Below are positions 3,772 through 36,305 of a stretch of DNA of 36,305 nucleotides, one piece after another (the stretch's first letter is position 1; every line of letters starts with the position of its first letter). Origin of the DNA: a virus; the IMG/VR virus record IMGVR_UViG_3300003319_000365, positions 1 through 36,305 of that record. One strand, 5' to 3'. The notes below the pieces were generated by a model. That model was not told the DNA's origin and searched no databases. It saw only the letters and a program-made list of their open reading frames with translations. A program made the translations under genes and the position numbers.

Positions 3772-3972
3772 GTGAAGAAAATAAAGATCGATCCAGAAAC
3801 TTACCACCTCTGTTGCATGTGCGGAAAAGACCATCCAGTGGCATATGTAGCAGATCGTTTCGGTGGCCTTCAAATGCTGATGTGGTGTAAAGAATGTAAT
3901 GGAGGATCGAGTGATCTGTCTTGTAATACCAGGAGTTCCCGTCGTTTGGCGCGCCCCTTACGTCGGAAGTAA
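3772..3972 (+). CDS. Small putative zinc-ribbon protein
   Basis: The product is 66 residues from a GTG at 3772 with no clear ribosome-binding site, so the start is uncertain. It has two CxxC pairs, CCMCGK and WCKEC, separated by about 23 residues, as in a treble-clef or zinc-ribbon fold. The last 20 residues are encoded in a region that also encodes the start of the RusA gene in another frame, and this tail looks non-functional. It opens the plus-strand recombination unit. Confidence 0.45.
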   Translation: MKKIKIDPETYHLCCMCGKDHPVAYVADRFGGLQMLMWCKECNGGSSDLSCNTRSSRRLARPLRRK

Positions 3973-4303
3973 GGGGGCATATAGCCCAAAGTATATCGAG
4001 AAACGCATTGTCCAAAATTTTCTTAAGGAAACGTACAAAGGAGAAATGGTAAAGCATCTCATCAGATGCGATATGATGTTCTTTTTGCCGATTCCGAAAA
4101 GCGCCTCCAAGAAAAAACAAGCACTCATGAGAAGCAAAGAAGCTCGTCCTACATCCGGAGGAGACCTAACAAACCTAAGAAAATTCTACGAAGATTGCTT
4201 ACAAGAGATTGTGATAGAAAACGATAGACAAATAGTTGAGGGCGAAACATCCAAATGGTACGATGACGACCCGAGAACAACCGTGCATATTTCTATCATC
4301 TAG
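3911..4303 (+). CDS. rusA: RusA-family Holliday junction resolvase
   Basis: This is a probable structure-specific endonuclease that resolves recombination junctions or trims branched DNA before packaging. I place the start at GTG 3911 because GGAGG lies 5 bases upstream; an ATG at 3899 is the alternative. The product is 130 residues. It has the RusA layout: an N-terminal strand LVIPGVPVVW, then MMFFLPIPKSASKKK near the middle, then GGDLTNLRKFYEDCL and VIENDRQI. The acidic residues in the last two segments correspond to the metal-binding aspartates of the family. It lies just before the Bet/Exo pair, which fits a recombination role. Confidence 0.85.
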   Translation: MICLVIPGVPVVWRAPYVGSKGAYSPKYIEKRIVQNFLKETYKGEMVKHLIRCDMMFFLPIPKSASKKKQALMRSKEARPTSGGDLTNLRKFYEDCLQEIVIENDRQIVEGETSKWYDDDPRTTVHISII

Positions 4304-14681: not shown

Positions 14682-14812
14682 TAGCCTGGAAAGACGGTAA
14701 GTATTGGGTGATTTACGATCAATCGACCGATTCTATGACTCAAGGAAAATCTTATCAGGATGCTATTTTTATGTTGTCTGATTTGCTAAAGGAAAAGGGA
14801 GTTGGATCATGA
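14678..14812 (+). CDS. hicB: Short HicB-like antitoxin with no conventional start codon
   Basis: The frame directly after HicA encodes about 44 residues with the HicB-type partial RNase H wording GKYWVIYDQSTDSMTQGKSY then a helix DAIFMLSDLLKEKG. There is no ATG, GTG or TTG at the expected place. The first candidate is ATA at 14678, overlapping the HicA stop codon TAA. The only ATG in frame is at 14585, deep inside hicA, which would add an implausible 31 residues. Either an unusual start, a frameshift from HicA, or loss of the start is implied. Its stop overlaps the next gene as ATGA, so coupling downstream is intact. Confidence 0.6.
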   Translation: MIAWKDGKYWVIYDQSTDSMTQGKSYQDAIFMLSDLLKEKGVGS

Positions 14813-15240
14813 CAACATTTTATGAAAAAGATTTTTACGGATGGTGTAATGATCAAGCTGAGGCGTTGGTTGCTGGACGTATTGAACAATGTGATTTAGA
14901 AAATTTAGTTGAGGAGATTAGAGGATTGGGAGACGTCAAGAGATGTGAATTAATTAATAATCTAGCTATTCTATTGGCGCATCTACTCAAATATACATTT
15001 CAGCCTGATAAACAGGGCCATAGCTGGGTATACACTATTATAGAGCACCAAGACAGAGTAAATGATATCTTGAAAAAAAACCCCAGTCTTAATTCACAAC
15101 TTAGCGAGTGTGTAGAAAAGGCTTATAGGTATGCAAGGCTTAGAGCTGCAAAAGAAACAGATTTGAAAATAAAGATTTTCCCAGAAGAAATGCCTTTCAC
15201 TATTGATTGGGCGCTAAAAGTAGAGCTGCAAAAGGAATAA
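14809..15240 (+). CDS. DUF29-family protein (copy 1)
   Basis: The product is 143 residues. It shows the DUF29 pattern in order: FYEKDFYGWCNDQAEALVAG (near residues 4-23), DLENLVEEIRGLGDVKR (about 29-45), LAHLLKYTFQP (about 56-66), then SWVYTIIEHQDRVND and KNPSLNSQL. It is a helical protein of unknown function, common in cyanobacteria and mobile elements. It overlaps the HicB-like gene by 4 bases and is followed 3 bases later by a second DUF29 gene, so all four are likely one operon. Confidence 0.85.
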   Translation: MTTFYEKDFYGWCNDQAEALVAGRIEQCDLENLVEEIRGLGDVKRCELINNLAILLAHLLKYTFQPDKQGHSWVYTIIEHQDRVNDILKKNPSLNSQLSECVEKAYRYARLRAAKETDLKIKIFPEEMPFTIDWALKVELQKE

Positions 15241-15243
15241 ATA

Positions 15244-15702
15244 ATGAAAAACAAAATTCCCTATGAATCTGCGAAAAAAACGCCGTATGAAACAGATTTT
15301 TACAGATGGTGCTTTTCTCAAGCCAACGCTTTGAGCAACCGGAGTTATGAGGAATTGGATATGGAAAATTTGATCGAGGAATTGGAGTCAATGGGAAGAT
15401 GTCAGCGACAAATGTTTACAAGTTTTTTAAAAAATGTATTTTTACATCTTTTAAAATATATGTATCAACCAGGGTGTCGAACTCCTAGCTGGCAAATCAG
15501 TATAGATATCCACAGAGAACACGCAGAAACAGTTTTGTATGACAACCCAAGTTTAAAGTCATCTATTCCTCAATGCATTAAAAGAGCATATTCTTTGTCC
15601 ATAAAAGAAGCTGCTAAAGAAACAGGACTAGATATTAAAACATTTCCTAAAGAAATGCCTTTTACCTATGAAAACGCTATGAAAGAAGGGTGGAGGCCAT
15701 GA
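15244..15702 (+). CDS. DUF29-family protein (copy 2)
   Basis: The product is 152 residues and a diverged tandem copy of the preceding gene. Matching landmarks are YETDFYRWCFSQANALSNRS, DMENLIEELESMGRCQRQ, HLLKYMYQPG and DNPSLKSSIPQCIKRAYSLS. It ends KEMPFTYENAMKEGWRP, close to the end of copy 1. Identity appears moderate, so the duplication is old or the two were acquired separately. It could form a heterodimer with copy 1. Function is unknown. Confidence 0.83.
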   Translation: MKNKIPYESAKKTPYETDFYRWCFSQANALSNRSYEELDMENLIEELESMGRCQRQMFTSFLKNVFLHLLKYMYQPGCRTPSWQISIDIHREHAETVLYDNPSLKSSIPQCIKRAYSLSIKEAAKETGLDIKTFPKEMPFTYENAMKEGWRP

Positions 15703-17294: not shown

Positions 17295-18097
17295 TTTACC
17301 AACTTTCCGCCAGCTCTTTGTGCTTCGATGGCTTTATTTCTTGGAATTTTTCTAATATTTCCTTCAGGATCTTGCATCATTACAAATCCTTCTTCTTTTT
17401 CAGGCGAGACTTCTTTTTTTACTTTTCCTTCCAAAACAGATGGATCAAGATCGAGTTCGCGCGCCAATCCTTTGAGCTTTCCTCGGATTGTCGCCTCACG
17501 ATCATTTGGTTTTGGGAGAAGAGTTTCTGTGATATATTTAAAACGAGCATTAGATAACGTTCCTCGGCTAACTCTATCTACAAGCATAGCTTCTAGCGCT
17601 CCAGACAGGGACTCAAATTCACCAACTGCTTCTGCTGTTTTCCCGCCAAAAACTTGACCTTTAACTTTCGATCCTAGTCCAAGTTCCTTTGATTTTAAGA
17701 GCTCTGCCATTCTATCGAACGAATCTTGCCCAGCTTTTTGTTCTTGTGCTAATTTTTGTTTTTGGGCGCGTTCTTTTTCTTGCCCAGAATAAATAGTAGC
17801 CAACGTGCTCGCCATCTGATGTTCTCCTGCTGCTTCTAGAGCTAATATTTTTTCAGGAGTGATTTCAAATCCTTTAGGTTGCGATGGTTTTTGTTCGAGA
17901 CTAAGCATTTCATCAAACGAAGCCTGTGGTTGACTAGTACCAAAAATGCTTTCCAATAATTTGGCCTGCTGTTTTTGCTTTTGCCTACCTAGGATCATCT
18001 CAGCAATTGTCGGCATCGCCTGCTGAAGTCCTAAACCAGCACCACGGACTAATCCGCTTAACGCTCCGCCTTGTTCTTGAAGAATAGGCAAACTCAT
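17291..18097 (-). CDS. Probable DNA-ejection (internal virion) protein, middle
   Basis: The product is 268 residues. The start is Gly/Ala-rich (GGALSGLVRGAGLGLQQAMP), then Gln/Lys-rich helices around 35-60 and 110-130 (QEKERAQKQKLAQEQKAGQD). The C-terminus carries FVMMQDPEGNIRKIPRNKAI, a motif I associate with the ends of phage structural proteins. It overlaps both neighbours by 4 bases, so it is translated with them. A role in the ejection complex is inferred. Confidence 0.58.
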   Translation of the reverse strand: MSLPILQEQGGALSGLVRGAGLGLQQAMPTIAEMILGRQKQKQQAKLLESIFGTSQPQASFDEMLSLEQKPSQPKGFEITPEKILALEAAGEHQMASTLATIYSGQEKERAQKQKLAQEQKAGQDSFDRMAELLKSKELGLGSKVKGQVFGGKTAEAVGEFESLSGALEAMLVDRVSRGTLSNARFKYITETLLPKPNDREATIRGKLKGLARELDLDPSVLEGKVKKEVSPEKEEGFVMMQDPEGNIRKIPRNKAIEAQRAGGKLVK

Positions 18098-18615
18098 AGT
18101 AACCCCGCTAGTTTAGACCCACCATAAATGCCCCCTATTTGAGATGCGCCTGAACCAAGCAGTTGCATGATGTCGCGCAATAAATTTTCTTTTTGATAAA
18201 GACCTATTTGATTCGTCTGCGTTCCAAGCAACCTATCTCCAAGCCCTAACACGTTCTGCATTGAGCGTTCCATAATACCCATACGCTGTGACTGAAGATT
18301 CTCTGCTAGATTTGCTCCCGCTCCAGCTATGGCATTTTGCATTCCTGAACTTCCAGAAATCCCTGATCCTGAATACCTTGCGGCAATTTCAGGAGCGATT
18401 ACTTGCTGAAATTGCCTTAGAGCGGGAACTTCCAATTGTTCGAATAAATCAGATTTACCACCAGCTAAACCAAAAAGTTTTTGATAAACCTCTGGACCAC
18501 CTGACTGAAACTGGCCTTTTAGTAAATCGTAAATTTGTTTTTGATCAGTCCCCATAGCTGGCAAAGAATAGAGACCAAAACCTTTAGGAATTTTTGCACC
18601 TGGGATTGAAGGCAT
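18094..18615 (-). CDS. Probable DNA-ejection (internal virion) protein, small
   Basis: The product is 173 residues. It is rich in Gly, Ser and Gln: an early FGLYSLPAMGTDQKQIYDLL, a middle PEIAARYSGSGISGSSGMQN, then helix AGANLAENLQSQRMGIMERS and a Gly-rich tail GSGASQIGGIYGGSKLAGLL. This layout (amphipathic helices and flexible Gly/Ser) resembles the small P22 gp7/T7 gp14-type ejection proteins. It is first in the three-gene set. The upstream boundary is the GGYNN array cassette on the opposite strand. Confidence 0.6.
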   Translation of the reverse strand: MPSIPGAKIPKGFGLYSLPAMGTDQKQIYDLLKGQFQSGGPEVYQKLFGLAGGKSDLFEQLEVPALRQFQQVIAPEIAARYSGSGISGSSGMQNAIAGAGANLAENLQSQRMGIMERSMQNVLGLGDRLLGTQTNQIGLYQKENLLRDIMQLLGSGASQIGGIYGGSKLAGLL

Positions 18616-18691: not shown

Positions 18692-18697
18692 TATAAT
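18692..18697 (+). promoter_or_regulatory. -10 box (TATAAT) of the GGYNN RNA
   Basis: A perfect TATAAT lies 15 bases before the first GGYNN unit, which puts the predicted start near 18704. A -35 box is less clear: the best candidates are CTGCAA (18667-18672) or the more distant TTGCAT (18661-18666). An activator may be needed. Confidence 0.55.
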
Positions 18698-18711
18698 TTT
18701 CCATGCCATAC

Positions 18712-18926
18712 GGTCCGCTTAGGTATGGTCCGGTAAGCTGGGCTTTGGCTGGGTATGGTTAGCCAAGGTTTGGTCCGGCACGGCATGCTGGGGCGGGATC
18801 AGGTTCGGCGCGGTTCGACACGGCTAGGTTCGCCATGGTCTGGCAAGGATTAATGTTGCGAGGTGAGCCGCGGCACGGTGGGGCTAGCTCAGGCGAGGCT
18901 TGGACGGGCGAGGCAAGGATGGCCCC
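18712..18926 (+). repeat. 43-unit degenerate pentanucleotide (GGYNN) array
   Basis: Split into 5-base units from 18712, every unit stays in register to 18926 with no insertion or deletion. By hand count, position 1 is G in 41 of 43 units, position 2 is G in 31 of 43 (mostly C otherwise), and position 3 is C or T in 40 of 43. Positions 4 and 5 vary freely. Units 28-30 (ggatt, aatgt, tgcga; 18847-18861) are the worst matches but keep the phase. GC content is far above the flanks. Normal tandem repeats drift in sequence and length together; here the phase is kept while two positions vary. Confidence 0.9.
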
Positions 18927-18947
18927 AAGAACAATCTTGTAGAGGTC

Positions 18948-18975
18948 TGCCCATGGGTAACTATGGGCATTTTTT
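18948..18975 (+). terminator. Intrinsic terminator after the GGYNN array
   Basis: A perfect 7-bp stem TGCCCAT (18948-18954) / ATGGGCA (18963-18969) with an 8-nt loop is followed by six T residues. It separates the array RNA from the protein gene, whose start codon follows 14 bases later. Partial read-through could link the two. Confidence 0.8.
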
Positions 18976-18989
18976 GCACAAGGAGAGCA

Positions 18990-19598
18990 ATGAAAAAGAG
19001 AATAGGTGGTGAAGCTCCTACAGCTTCGGCTAATGACACAATTGGAATATCAGAACCCTACTCTGTAGAAGTAGAGCTCACGGGATCAGCAAACATGATG
19101 TTCCATCGATGGATGTGCGAGTATGTCGCAGAGAAAGCTAAAGCCGCGAAAGGATCAAAAGCCAAAAAATCAGATGATATCGAGACTTTTGTCTATAGAG
19201 ATGAACAAAATAATATTTGTTTGCCTGGAGAGTATTTGCGGCAATCTATCATTGGAGCTTCAAAATTTCGCCAAGATCCTAGATCTCCTAGGAAGTCGGC
19301 AATGGATCTTTTTAAAGCAGCGATCATTGTTGAAACAGAATTAGCGTCTCTTGGCATCAAGAAATGGGATTATGAAGATCATAGACGCGTGGTAATACAA
19401 AGAAATGCCATCACAAGAATCCGTCCTGCTATCTCTAAAGGATGGAAAGCTGTTTTTAAAATTTTAGTTTTACTTCCAGAATATATTTCTGCGGATGATT
19501 TACATGATGTAATTAGTAATGCTGGTAGATTAATAGGAGTTGGTGATTTTAGGCCAACTTATGGCAGGTTTTTCATCTCAAAATTCGAAAAATTGTAA
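18990..19598 (+). CDS. Array-associated protein, RAMP/Cas7-like candidate
   Basis: The product is 202 residues from the ATG at 18990, chosen because AAGGAG lies 4 bases upstream; an in-frame start at 18900 would lie inside the array and is unlikely. I do not recognise a named family. Visible features are an N-terminal strand YSVEVELTGSANMMFHRW (about 24-41), a Lys/Ala-rich linker (about 48-62), ICLPGEYLRQSIIGASKF (about 76-93), RRVVIQRNAITRIRPA (about 132-147), and a Gly-rich end AGRLIGVGDFRPTYGRFFIS (about 179-198). The LPGEYLRxS segment plus a late glycine-rich loop ending in GRF loosely recall RAMP/Cas7 proteins (ferredoxin-like RNA binders). This is inference. It forms a plus-strand cassette with the array, inserted between minus-strand structural genes. 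Confidence 0.6.
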   Translation: MKKRIGGEAPTASANDTIGISEPYSVEVELTGSANMMFHRWMCEYVAEKAKAAKGSKAKKSDDIETFVYRDEQNNICLPGEYLRQSIIGASKFRQDPRSPRKSAMDLFKAAIIVETELASLGIKKWDYEDHRRVVIQRNAITRIRPAISKGWKAVFKILVLLPEYISADDLHDVISNAGRLIGVGDFRPTYGRFFISKFEKL

Positions 19599-26371: not shown

Positions 26372-28088
26372 TTAGAGTGCTAGCGTAGCGCGCATGTTTT
26401 GGATCCAGGTATCTTGAGTGATCACCTGTGCTTGGGCGAATTTAACGCCAAGTGTACCGTTCAAAGCCAATGGTCCTGAGAATATTGGCGGACGATAGAT
26501 AAGCTGGCTGGAATAGCCGTCTTGTTCGATGTGTGCATAAGCCTCACGAGCAACGACCATGTTGTTGTATACATCACGTCCGTTGATCGATGCAGCAAGT
26601 TGCACCTCTGCGTTTGAGCTAGTCAGGATTCTGAAGTTCGTTACAGAACCGAATTCTGAATAGAGTACATCGTTTTGGTTTGGATAGTTCCAGGCATTGA
26701 TAAAGCCGTTCAACGTATCCAGAGTAGCTTCCTCAAGCGTATGAGCCAACACGAAGTAAGCCGCACGAATTGGAGCTGTTCCAAAGCGATCCTCACCTTG
26801 TTTACCTGTCAAGAATTTGAACGCATTCGCAGTGTCTAGAGCAGCGTTTACGTTAGCAAAGTCTCTCAGCGTAAGCTCAGTTGGGCTGTCGCCGTTTACT
26901 CCTCTCTGGCAGTTATATTGAGAAGCTGCTGAAAGAAGATAGTTGCCGAGGATTGTGTCTTCGGCTTGCTTCATAGCTACGCCAAGACGCTCACTTACCC
27001 AAGATAATACTGGATCTTGCGATCACTGTTACTTCTACCGCTTGGACGGCGGAGGGTCTTGTTATTCCCCTCTCTTCTCATCTCTGAGAAGGCCCGACTA
27101 TCGCATCCTCTTTCGAGGTTATCTCGTTTAGTCTGTCAGCCTGGACTTAAATGTTCCAATGTAGTACTATATGGTAGTCTTGAAAAGCAGATACCATGAC
27201 TACAAGGAAACCTTACGTTTTTAAAGAATTTGCTCCCCTTCATCTTGCTTACCTTGCTGGTATCATTGATGGAGAGGGTTGTTTTCACATTAGCATTCTT
27301 ACTGGGAAAGCCTATGATGGCTACCTGAACGACCATTTCCGTGGAGTTTTGAAGGTTTCTAACACCGACAAAAGTCTCATTGATTGGTTGCTCGACAATT
27401 TCAGTGGCACTGAATCCGCTGCAACTAGATCTACCTCTTCCAAAAAATTTGAAAGAGAGATCTTTGATTGGATCGTCACTGGATTTCGCCTTCACGATCT
27501 TTGCGAACAGGTGCTTCCTTATCTTGTCATAAAGAAATGCCATTGTGAAAACATGATAAGATTTCGAACGACCTACCCAAGAATCCCAGTTGGAAGAGGA
27601 AACAAAACCCTTTCGGAAGAAGTCCTTTGTCTTCGTAAAGAATGTTGGGAAGTTGCTCGTCATCTTAACTCGCGCTTTCATCTTAAAAAACTCTCATAAG
27701 TCCTTGGCCCTTGTTGTCCGTCTGCTTACGCAGCGAGGAGTTCCAAGTCAATTAGAGATAATTTAGACAGGACCATGTTTATAAAATCCTGTATAATCAC
27801 TTGTTCGTTCAGAATTACAGATGTACCGTAAAAGCTGATCGTAGCGTCAATGATGTTTCTCGTAGCCACTTGGCTCGTAGGCTCTATCCCAGTATTGCCC
27901 AATGGAGTAGTTGGAGGAACGAGAGGATTTGGTCGCAAAAACCGCATCGTCGTACCACCGTTTCTTGGCATCGCATACTTATCCGCAGGGATTATGTAGT
28001 TGAAGTTGGGCGTTGGGACTGAAAGCATACCAGCCGCTAGACTCTGGCGTATTGGCGCCGGAAGATCTGTGGTAGTGGTTATTGACAT
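26372..28088 (-). CDS. Major capsid protein, N4-gp56 family, interrupted by a group I intron
   Basis: The gene is split: exon 1 is 28088-27786 and exon 2 is 27019-26372, giving 316 residues after splicing. Exon 1 has the family pattern TTMRFLRPNPLVPPTTPLGN and FYGTSVILNEQVIIQD; exon 2 resumes QDPVLSWVSERLGVAMKQAE and continues through YLLSAASQYNC to GVKFAQAQVITQDTW near the end. In N4-gp56 proteins a DPVL-type segment normally follows the strand seen at the end of exon 1 after the same number of residues, so the join restores the expected alignment. The intervening 766 bases break the frame. Without splicing, exon 1 would run on into intron codons and stop after 20 extra residues. Confidence 0.85.
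27020..27785 (-). ncRNA. Group I self-splicing intron in the capsid gene
   Basis: On the minus strand the 3' third shows a group I core: the P7 strands GACTA (27129-27133) and TAGTC (27096-27100), a P8 hairpin CCTC-GAAA-GAGG (27107-27118) between them, and a 7-bp P9-like hairpin (27074-27091). The end of exon 1, ACAGGAT, pairs with GTCCTGT (27767-27773) to form P1 with the T opposite G, as required at a group I 5' splice site. The intron ends in G (27020). The endonuclease gene lies in the middle on the opposite strand. Confidence 0.85.
27196..27699 (+). CDS. LAGLIDADG homing endonuclease, antisense to its host intron
   Basis: The product is 167 residues. The signature YLAGIIDGEGCF at about residues 18-29 is a LAGLIDADG motif with its catalytic Asp/Glu. 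Only one clear copy is seen, so it should act as a homodimer. The remaining wording (VSNTDKSLIDWLLDNF, FDWIVTGFRLHDLCEQVLPY, LVIKKCHCENMIRFR) fits the family fold. Unusually it is coded on the plus strand, opposite to the intron and capsid gene, so it needs its own promoter; none is obvious just before 27196. It would spread the intron by cutting intron-less capsid genes. Confidence 0.88.
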   Translation: MTTRKPYVFKEFAPLHLAYLAGIIDGEGCFHISILTGKAYDGYLNDHFRGVLKVSNTDKSLIDWLLDNFSGTESAATRSTSSKKFEREIFDWIVTGFRLHDLCEQVLPYLVIKKCHCENMIRFRTTYPRIPVGRGNKTLSEEVLCLRKECWEVARHLNSRFHLKKLS

Positions 28089-33958: not shown

Positions 33959-34525
33959 ATGAGACCATGTGAATTGTGTCATCAGAAAAACGATAGGCCA
34001 CGAGCTACCACCTGTAAGAAATGTCAAAAAAAATGGCTTCTTACCTATCAAAGAGACTATCGAACGAAGAATAAGGAATTGGTGCGCGAAAGGATCAAAA
34101 ATTCGCATGCTAAAAAACCAGAATATTATAAGCAATTGCATTTCAAACATTACGTGAAAAGACACGGATTTCCCGTTGATCATATAGCCAAAAAAAAGGC
34201 TAAACCAGGAGAAGGAAACATCAATTGCCAAGGATATAGGAGGATTTCGAAAAAAAATCATCCAAATGCACAGGCCTCCGGAATAATTTTAGAGCATATT
34301 TATGTGATGTCTGAATATCTTGGACGCCCTCTATTTAATGGAGAAACTGTGCATCACAAAAATGGAAATCGTTTAGATAATCGTCTAGACAATTTAGAGC
34401 TATGGAGCAAATCCCATCCTCCTGGCCAACGAGTTGAAGACAAAATCAAGTGGTGCATCGCCTTTTTGAAACAATATGGATACACTATTAGCGACGGAGC
34501 CGCATGTTCAAAAACCTTAAGATAA
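33959..34525 (+). CDS. HNH endonuclease with N-terminal zinc finger
   Basis: The product is 188 residues. N-terminal CELCHQK and CKKCQKK pairs bind zinc (about 4-24), followed by a basic helical region. The HNH_3-type core is at about 108-165: LEHIYVMSEYLGRPLFNGET, then VHHKNGNRLDNRLDNLELWS and HPPGQRVED. The catalytic histidines are in the VHHKNGN segment. Free-standing HNH enzymes of this kind are typical selfish genes in phages. It starts a plus-strand island between the portal and terL with no intron around it. The start has a weak ribosome-binding site. Confidence 0.88.
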   Translation: MRPCELCHQKNDRPRATTCKKCQKKWLLTYQRDYRTKNKELVRERIKNSHAKKPEYYKQLHFKHYVKRHGFPVDHIAKKKAKPGEGNINCQGYRRISKKNHPNAQASGIILEHIYVMSEYLGRPLFNGETVHHKNGNRLDNRLDNLELWSKSHPPGQRVEDKIKWCIAFLKQYGYTISDGAACSKTLR

Positions 34526-35721: not shown

Positions 35722-35880
35722 TCAATCACCCCAAACCATGTCATAAAGATGGTCTAGCGATTCTTCTAGTTTACGCACTTTTTCTTCAAGCACCTTTACC
35801 TCGGCCTCAAGATTGTCATAGGCTTCCCTTGCGGCTTTGGAGGCAACCAAGGACTGTTTCTTTGGGTTTCCTTCTTCCAT
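35722..35880 (-). CDS. Coiled-coil small protein overlapping the end of terL
   Basis: The product is 52 residues, starting at 35880 inside the last 85 bases of terL in another frame, with AAAGG about 10 bases upstream. It reads MEEGNPKKQSLVASKAAREA, then a heptad-like NLEAEVKVLEEKVRKLEESL. It forms a coupled pair with the 72-residue gene. Both may be partners in a small coiled-coil complex. The overlap explains why it is short and easily missed. Confidence 0.55.
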   Translation of the reverse strand: MEEGNPKKQSLVASKAAREAYDNLEAEVKVLEEKVRKLEESLDHLYDMVWGD

Positions 35881-36305
35881 TGCTCAAATGCCCTTTGCTC
35901 CTGAGTGAGCTCTGTTAGATCTTTCTTGTGTCCCCAATGAGTAAAAACCGCATATCTCGTTGCATCTAGAACGTGATCGAAAGCTTTTACTGGTTCATCC
36001 ACACCTCTTTCTGCCTTTTTCGTATCCCACACGTATGATTGAAACTCTTGGATCAAATTCTTACAGCACCTACAGACCTTAAAGTCTCCTGTCGCTAAAC
36101 GCAACGAAATAGTTCTGATGCCATCGAGCACATCGTTCTTGGCGTCCTTGATTGCAAGCGTAGGGCTTCGTCTTCTAAGTTCAAGCTTGAAGGAAGCAGC
36201 GGATGGATCAATGTACAACGCCTTGAGTGGATAGTCTGAGAGGAACTCAAAGAAATCATCGGCATATTCGGCATCCGTTTTCTGCCTCCCTTCCTTTTTC
36301 GAATC
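35796..36305 (-). CDS. terL: Terminase large subunit, C-terminal nuclease half (runs off the right edge)
   Basis: The frame is open from the right edge (36305, codon GAT) to a stop at 35796, 169 residues. Conserved nuclease-domain wording is KALYIDPSAASFKLELRRR, then AKNDVLDGIRTISLRL, QEFQSYVWDTKKAERGVDEP and VKAFDHVLDATRYAVF. The acidic residues in IDPSA, KNDVLDG and FDHVLDA correspond to the metal-binding positions of the RNase H-like domain. It is the second half of the ATPase gene at 1-602. Together they give 369 residues, somewhat short of the usual length, so part of the middle is missing at the window ends. Confidence 0.93.
   Translation of the reverse strand, partial: DSKKEGRQKTDAEYADDFFEFLSDYPLKALYIDPSAASFKLELRRRSPTLAIKDAKNDVLDGIRTISLRLATGDFKVCRCCKNLIQEFQSYVWDTKKAERGVDEPVKAFDHVLDATRYAVFTHWGHKKDLTELTQEQRAFEQWKKETQRNSPWLPPKPQGKPMTILRPR

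What the first reader, a model, noticed from the sequence alone, without database searches (positions are those of the whole stretch)
18704..18975. Self-contained non-coding RNA built from 43 in-phase GGYNN units
The array at 18712-18926 keeps a strict 5-base register over 215 bases: by hand count position 1 is G in 41 of 43 units and position 3 is C or T in 40 of 43, while positions 4-5 vary freely. A TATAAT box (18692-18697) lies just before it and a perfect intrinsic terminator (18948-18975) just after it, so it looks like a dedicated RNA and not degraded coding DNA. A constant GGY scaffold with a free dinucleotide per unit would fit an RNA bound by repeated protein subunits, with the NN positions carrying variable information, or a G-rich structural or decoy RNA. 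I know of no named class that fits this description.
Basis: partly seen in the sequence, partly recalled or inferred. Interest (0 to 1): 0.95.

Follow-up and report, generated by a model that had tools for sequence, protein, structure and literature searches.

The report
VIPR guide-RNA array in a phage
The odd five-base repeat is the guide RNA of a recently described phage weapon called VIPR: a Cas7-like protein encoded next to it very probably uses the two free letters of each repeat to find and switch off genes of rival phages.

Summary
The array is real: 43 units, G at position 1 in 41/43, pyrimidine at position 3 in 40/43, about 16 SD above shuffles. It is not an unnamed class. The gene 64 nt downstream (18990-19598, +) is a homolog of SUSP1 Vipr (PDB 36pp; profile E 2.5e-53) with a Cas7/Csm3-type RAMP fold. 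The array matches the vrRNA of VIPR systems (GGY/NN repeats read with a 1-nt skip; preprint PMC13142463). In 77 of 80 IMG/VR relatives such arrays lie near vipr. An all-against-all test in this clade independently recovers the 1-nt-skip code: 151 matches of at least 22/24 bases, none in three shuffled sets or with skip 0 or 2. Targets are conserved motifs of rivals' genes, mostly with the skipped base at the codon wobble position. Matches cover 10-15 units even inside long arrays, and the carrier's own homolog is mismatched. In the window, units 17-28 match a tail-region gene of a related VIPR-carrying phage 22/24. Units 2-15 match, imperfectly (23/28) and in frame, the window's own neighbouring structural gene, as expected if its homologs in rivals are the target. 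A new member of a known kind, probably three tandem guides in one unbroken array.

The parts
18692..18697 (+). TATAAT, possible -10 box; no -35 found
   Evidence: sequence; one search found no promoter-like pair
18712..18926 (+). vrRNA array, 43 in-phase G[G/C]YNN units (numbered 0-42 in the report)
   Evidence: shuffle test; same detector recovers the four published SUSP1 vrRNAs
18722..18791 (+). probable guide A (units 2-15); decodes with the 1-nt skip to codons I P K G F . . Y . L P . M G
   Evidence: 23/28 bases against the window's own gene at 18550-18591 (-), in codon frame; 1/3000 shuffles as good
18797..18856 (+). probable guide B (units 17-28)
   Evidence: 22/24 against L135:1561-1596; the pattern occurs in one contig of the viral collection, that same phage
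18852..18861 (+). irregular units 28-29 (AATGT TGCGA), likely boundary between guides
   Evidence: preceded by GGCAAGGAT, which also precedes the array end (18912-18920)
18862..18926 (+). probable guide C (units 30-42), target not found
   Evidence: inferred from 10-15-unit guide length and the boundary; no target within 3 mismatches in 48 records
18921..18947 (+). 3' tail hairpin: GGCC/GGTC outer pairs, CAAGA/TCTTG inner stem
   Evidence: same fold in L004 with CAATC/GATTG (two compensatory pair changes)
18948..18975 (+). intrinsic terminator (stem 18948-18969, T run 18970-18975), end of vrRNA tail
   Evidence: conserved in L004
18980..18985 (+). AAGGAG ribosome-binding site of vipr
   Evidence: sequence
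18990..19598 (+). vipr: 202-aa RAMP (Cas7-like) protein, phrog_4652
   Evidence: PDB 36pp SUSP1 Vipr; AlphaFold2 pLDDT 88; Foldseek: Csm3/Cas7 subunits
18550..18591 (-). imperfect self match of guide A, codons 9-22 of the neighbouring structural gene 18094-18615 (-)
   Evidence: per-unit table; shuffle test; homologous site in L004's phage scores 19/28

Best explanation
18692-19598 is a VIPR locus carried by a phage on the strand opposite to its structural operon. The array is transcribed as one or more vrRNAs ending in a hairpin plus terminator tail. Vipr subunits coat the RNA, one per 5-nt unit, holding GGY and presenting NN. The RNA-protein filament scans double-stranded DNA, pairing NN to target dinucleotides and skipping one target base per unit, and blocks transcription of genes of rival phages. 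The 43 units most likely hold three consecutive guides of about 12-16 units. Guide A is aimed at homologs of the neighbouring structural gene in rivals, and guide B at a tail-region gene of a related VIPR-carrying phage. The carrier's own copies escape through mismatches. Shown here: array, Vipr homology and fold, linkage, skip code in this clade, guide length, mismatched own copies. Taken from the published system: RNP formation and transcriptional repression. Inferred: one subunit per unit, three guides, their processing, and targets A and B.
For: Array statistics. Next gene matches PDB 36pp SUSP1 Vipr: E 5.4e-7 single sequence, 2.5e-53 profile. Predicted structure matches Csm3/Cas7 subunits at probability 1.00. 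The detector recovers SUSP1's four known vrRNAs. Arrays lie near vipr in 77/80 relatives; in 49 loci chosen by another gene the only array is in L135, whose phage also has a Vipr. Skip-1 decoding gives 151 matches >=22/24 in 13 arrays; three shuffled sets, skip 0 and skip 2 give none. Targets lie at conserved motifs, mostly on the coding strand with the skip at codon position 3. Own homologs score 15-19/24 where relatives score 21-23. Window: guide A self match 23/28, 1/3000 shuffles; guide B 22/24 in L135, and a 19-base version of its pattern occurs in one viral contig, the same phage. Tail conserved with compensatory changes. Mechanism: PMC13142463.
Against: Nothing shows the window's array is transcribed or bound. 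43 units exceed the 9-16 given for vrRNAs in the preprint's main text. Guide A has only an imperfect match, in the carrier itself; exact patterns found nothing convincing. Guide B's match has the skip at codon position 1, unlike most others. Guide C has no target. No vap gene lies next to vipr. No -35 box was found.
Confidence: 0.93

Rival explanations
1. The array is one very long guide (28 or 43 units) that coats a single stretch of 84-129 bp, not several guides in a row.
For: No tail or terminator interrupts the array. Units 22, 25 and 26 also match the own gene on the same diagonal as guide A. Arrays of 40-176 unbroken units exist in the clade.
Against: Wherever a target is known, the match covers 10-15 units and stops, also inside arrays of 24-35 units. 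In L016 two segments of one array have different targets. In the window, units 17-28 match a different gene of another phage. Units 16-27 match the own gene in only 9/24 bases.
Confidence: 0.17
2. Guide A acts on the phage's own neighbouring gene (18094-18615, -), regulating its structural operon, rather than on rivals.
For: The best match found for units 2-15 is the own gene at its 5' end, in frame.
Against: Five of 28 bases mismatch. In eight other arrays the carrier's own homolog is the worse match while relatives match better.
Confidence: 0.12
3. The array is a decoy or structural G-rich RNA, unrelated to the protein downstream.
For: It folds somewhat better than shuffles (z -2.0).
Against: Linkage to vipr in 77/80 relatives, the decoding result and the published system.
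Confidence: 0.02
4. A degenerate tandem repeat or degraded coding DNA.
For: Tandem repeats can arise by slippage.
Against: Tandem Repeats Finder reports nothing here, NN varies freely while phase is kept, the register is kept in relatives with unrelated NN, and no long open frame covers it.
Confidence: 0.01

Closest known systems
VIPR system of Escherichia phage SUSP1 (type II), vrRNA plus Vipr; PMC13142463, PDB 36pp
   Same: Phage-borne; ~200-aa RAMP protein; GGY/NN units of 5 nt beside vipr; structured 3' tail; 1-nt-skip decoding works in this clade; targets in rival mobile elements
   Different: Vipr 28-33% identical; 43 unbroken units with one tail (SUSP1: 13-16 units per array); position 2 is G or C; no vap neighbour; other VIPR type possible but not assignable from the main text
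Phage DSL-LC04 (OR003939) VIPR-like locus
   Same: Vipr 54-58% identical; arrays directly upstream of vipr (21, 12 and 13 units)
   Different: Has a small gene overlapping vipr's end; several arrays; vipr is annotated there as a helix-turn-helix regulator
CRISPR type III Csm3 / Cas7 backbone subunits
   Same: Fold of the predicted Vipr model; subunits repeat along a guide RNA
   Different: Single small RRM-type protein, 5-nt not 6-nt period, no CRISPR repeats, no cas genes, non-contiguous pairing

Membership tests
VIPR | Vipr protein: RAMP homolog related to SUSP1 Vipr | tested here: met
   (36pp)
VIPR | vrRNA of tandem 5-nt units, GGY constant and NN variable, next to vipr | tested here: met
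   position 2 is C in 9 of 43 units
VIPR | 9-16 units per vrRNA | tested here: inconclusive
   43 unbroken units; segments matching targets are 12-14 units
VIPR | conserved structured 3' tail after the units | tested here: met
   same two hairpins in L004, two compensatory changes; only two sequences
VIPR | targets recognised by NN with 1-nt skip | tested here: met
   clade-wide; window guide B 22/24, guide A 23/28 in own gene
VIPR | vap accessory gene next to vipr (typical, not universal, in PMC13142463) | tested here: inconclusive
   the gene after vipr in the window is on the other strand, so no adjacent vap; the paper says loci 'typically' include one, so it is not a strict requirement; a vap elsewhere in the window was not excluded. 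RusA follows vipr in 28 relatives
VIPR | Vipr-vrRNA RNP binds DNA and represses transcription | not testable with these tools
   shown for SUSP1 in PMC13142463
CRISPR-Cas class 1 | CRISPR repeats with spacers, and other cas genes | tested here: not met
   no such repeats or genes found

The most novel reading that the evidence does not exclude
In this Vipr clade, unbroken arrays of 20 to 176 units encode several guides back to back without a tail between them. The guides are picked against conserved protein motifs of related phages at codon resolution, while the carrier's own copy has changed residues in those motifs, giving codon-level self/non-self discrimination. The preprint's main text mentions overlapping 'staggered' arrays but not these points; its supplement could not be read.
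Probability: 0.5. Interest if true: 0.72.

Novelty: new member of a known kind. Interest (0 to 1): 0.6.

Why it matters
VIPR was reported only in April 2026 and is proposed to be older than CRISPR. This is an independent finding of it from raw sequence, and the clade-wide test confirms its non-contiguous code in phages far from the ones tested (genomes with relatives include Phycisphaerae, Thermomonas and a cyanobacterium). The data also suggest how guides are organised in long arrays and how a phage avoids hitting itself, both directly testable.

Tried and rejected
The search for related loci with the Vipr sequence alone found nothing; a two-sequence alignment was needed. Exact target patterns: units 9-18, 0 hits; units 2-9, 13 hits, none extending convincingly beyond the seed, so chance; own-gene-shared positions, 0 hits; guides A and C with up to 3 mismatches in 48 related phage records, 0 hits. 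L135's own array has no convincing target in the window. No Rfam family covers the array, and no Pfam, PADLOC or NCBIfam family covers the protein. Folding of the middle of the array shows no special structure around units 25-33. VIPR type could not be assigned because type criteria are in the supplement, which could not be read.

Full report
Observation. The 215 bases at 18712-18926 form 43 in-phase 5-base units, with G at position 1 in 41, C or T at position 3 in 40, and positions 4-5 free. The score is about 16 SD above dinucleotide shuffles and nothing else in the window comes near it. Position 2 is G in 31 and C in 9, so G[G/C]YNN is a better consensus.

What it is. The next gene on the same strand (18990-19598, good ribosome-binding site) matches one protein in the PDB, 'SUSP1 Vipr protein' 36pp. 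With a 46-row family profile (which includes SUSP1's own Vipr as one row) the match is E 2.5e-53. AlphaFold2 gives pLDDT 88, and Foldseek's best solved structures are Csm3/Cas7 backbone subunits of type III and VII CRISPR complexes. The preprint PMC13142463 describes VIPR: a phage RAMP protein, Vipr, with vrRNAs of 9-16 YNNGG units plus a structured tail, which bind double-stranded DNA through NN while skipping one target base per unit, and repress transcription. The array is such an RNA.

Relatives. Eighty IMG/VR loci encode Vipr relatives at 53-77% identity. Arrays lie within 1.5 kb of vipr in 77. As a positive control the same detector finds SUSP1's four vrRNAs at 14, 16, 15 and 13 units, one upstream and three downstream, as published. 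As a negative control, 49 loci picked by the neighbouring structural gene hold one array, in L135, whose phage also encodes a divergent Vipr. In this clade unbroken arrays are often long: of 304 arrays 157 exceed 16 units, 19 reach 40, and one has 176. GTDB genomes with relatives include many Phycisphaerae, Thermomonas flagellata and Stenomitos. The window's host is unknown. The closest relative, L004 (77%), carries a 20-unit array with other NN but the same tail: two hairpins, the first with two compensatory pair changes.

The code, tested here. Every 12-unit stretch of 268 arrays was compared with 2.9 Mb (both strands) of fetched loci. With a 1-nt skip there are 151 matches of 22-23/24 from 13 arrays (related target loci count separately). 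Three shuffles of NN order, skip 0 and skip 2 give none. This reproduces the preprint's rule in another clade. Matches lie mostly on the coding strand with the skipped base at codon position 3, at conserved motifs such as VYGTPGIGKSTFG, VIPTGGGKTPVIA and NVLTTGFDAP. Many apparent antisense assignments are probably overlapping open frames in GC-rich DNA. L016's array matches other phages' vipr (coordinates inside the vipr match). Matched stretches span 10-15 units, also inside arrays of 24-35 units, and often stop about two units before the array's end. In eight arrays with a recognisable own homolog of the target, that homolog scores 15-19/24 against 21-23 in relatives: carriers differ from their own guides.

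The window's guides. Units 2-15 match the 5' end of the window's own neighbouring gene 18094-18615 (-), codons 9-22, in 23/28 bases, in frame with the skip at wobble. One of 3000 shuffles does as well anywhere in the window. L004's homolog has its best hit at the same site, 19/28. By analogy with the other arrays, the intended target is a homolog in a rival not yet found. Units 17-28 match a structural gene of L135's phage in 22/24; the window's homologous site matches only 13/24. A 19-base version of that pattern, chosen after seeing L135, occurs in one contig of the viral collection, the same phage. That phage is one of 51 loci found by the structural gene next to the array and, of 42 such records, one of two with a Vipr. 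A caveat is that the skip falls on codon position 1 there. Units 30-42 have no known target. The irregular units 28-29, and the repeated GGCAAGGAT before both late boundaries, fit three guides.

Anatomy and setting. The window is a 36.3 kb IMG/VR phage record with a P22-like portal, RecT, YqaJ/RecE-type exonuclease and RusA. In L084 the homologs of the genes flanking the VIPR locus are adjacent to each other, so the locus looks like an inserted cassette on the opposite strand. No vap gene follows vipr.

Verdict. New member of a known kind, with an array organisation that may be a variant. Not shown: transcription, binding and activity of this locus.

Noticed in passing
26372-28088: The major head protein gene (-) is split: N-terminal part 27726-28088 and C-terminal part 26372-26974 (both phrog_1357), with a LAGLIDADG-type endonuclease ORF on the opposite strand between them (27196-27699, +). 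Probably an intron or similar insertion; Rfam shows no group I intron at its cut-off.
   Followed up: partly
33959-34525 and 35796-36218: An HNH endonuclease (+) lies between the portal gene and the terminase region; only the C-terminal part of a large terminase is seen at 35796-36218 (-).
   Followed up: no
L063:4910-5789: An unbroken vrRNA-like array of 176 units (880 nt), plus arrays of 38, 15 and 61 units nearby; far longer than any vrRNA in the preprint's main text.
   Followed up: partly
L059:5493-5542: Arrays separated by long near-perfect hairpins (23-bp arms, 4-nt loop) of similar sequence, possibly processing signals.
   Followed up: no
L070:943-1009, L070:1645-1713, L063:1564-1630: Type II hammerhead ribozymes some 2-3 kb upstream of vipr in two relatives.
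   Followed up: no
L188:5001-5409: In a Chlamydiia MAG the Vipr match stops at residue 109 and a 21-unit array begins two bases later; vipr may be broken or the contig rearranged.
   Followed up: no
L016:4605-4759: First 11 units of a 31-unit array match the vipr gene of other phages (VIPR against VIPR).
   Followed up: partly
L001:2929-3546 (OR003939): Vipr of phage DSL-LC04 is annotated as a helix-turn-helix transcriptional regulator, probably a misannotation.
   Followed up: partly
14809-15702: Two adjacent similar genes (+); the first is a DUF29 protein.
   Followed up: no
L022, L026, L052 and other loci (28 in all), downstream of vipr: A RusA-like gene (by eye, from its sequence) follows vipr and its arrays in 28 relatives; the window's RusA lies far away at 3899-4303.
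   Followed up: no
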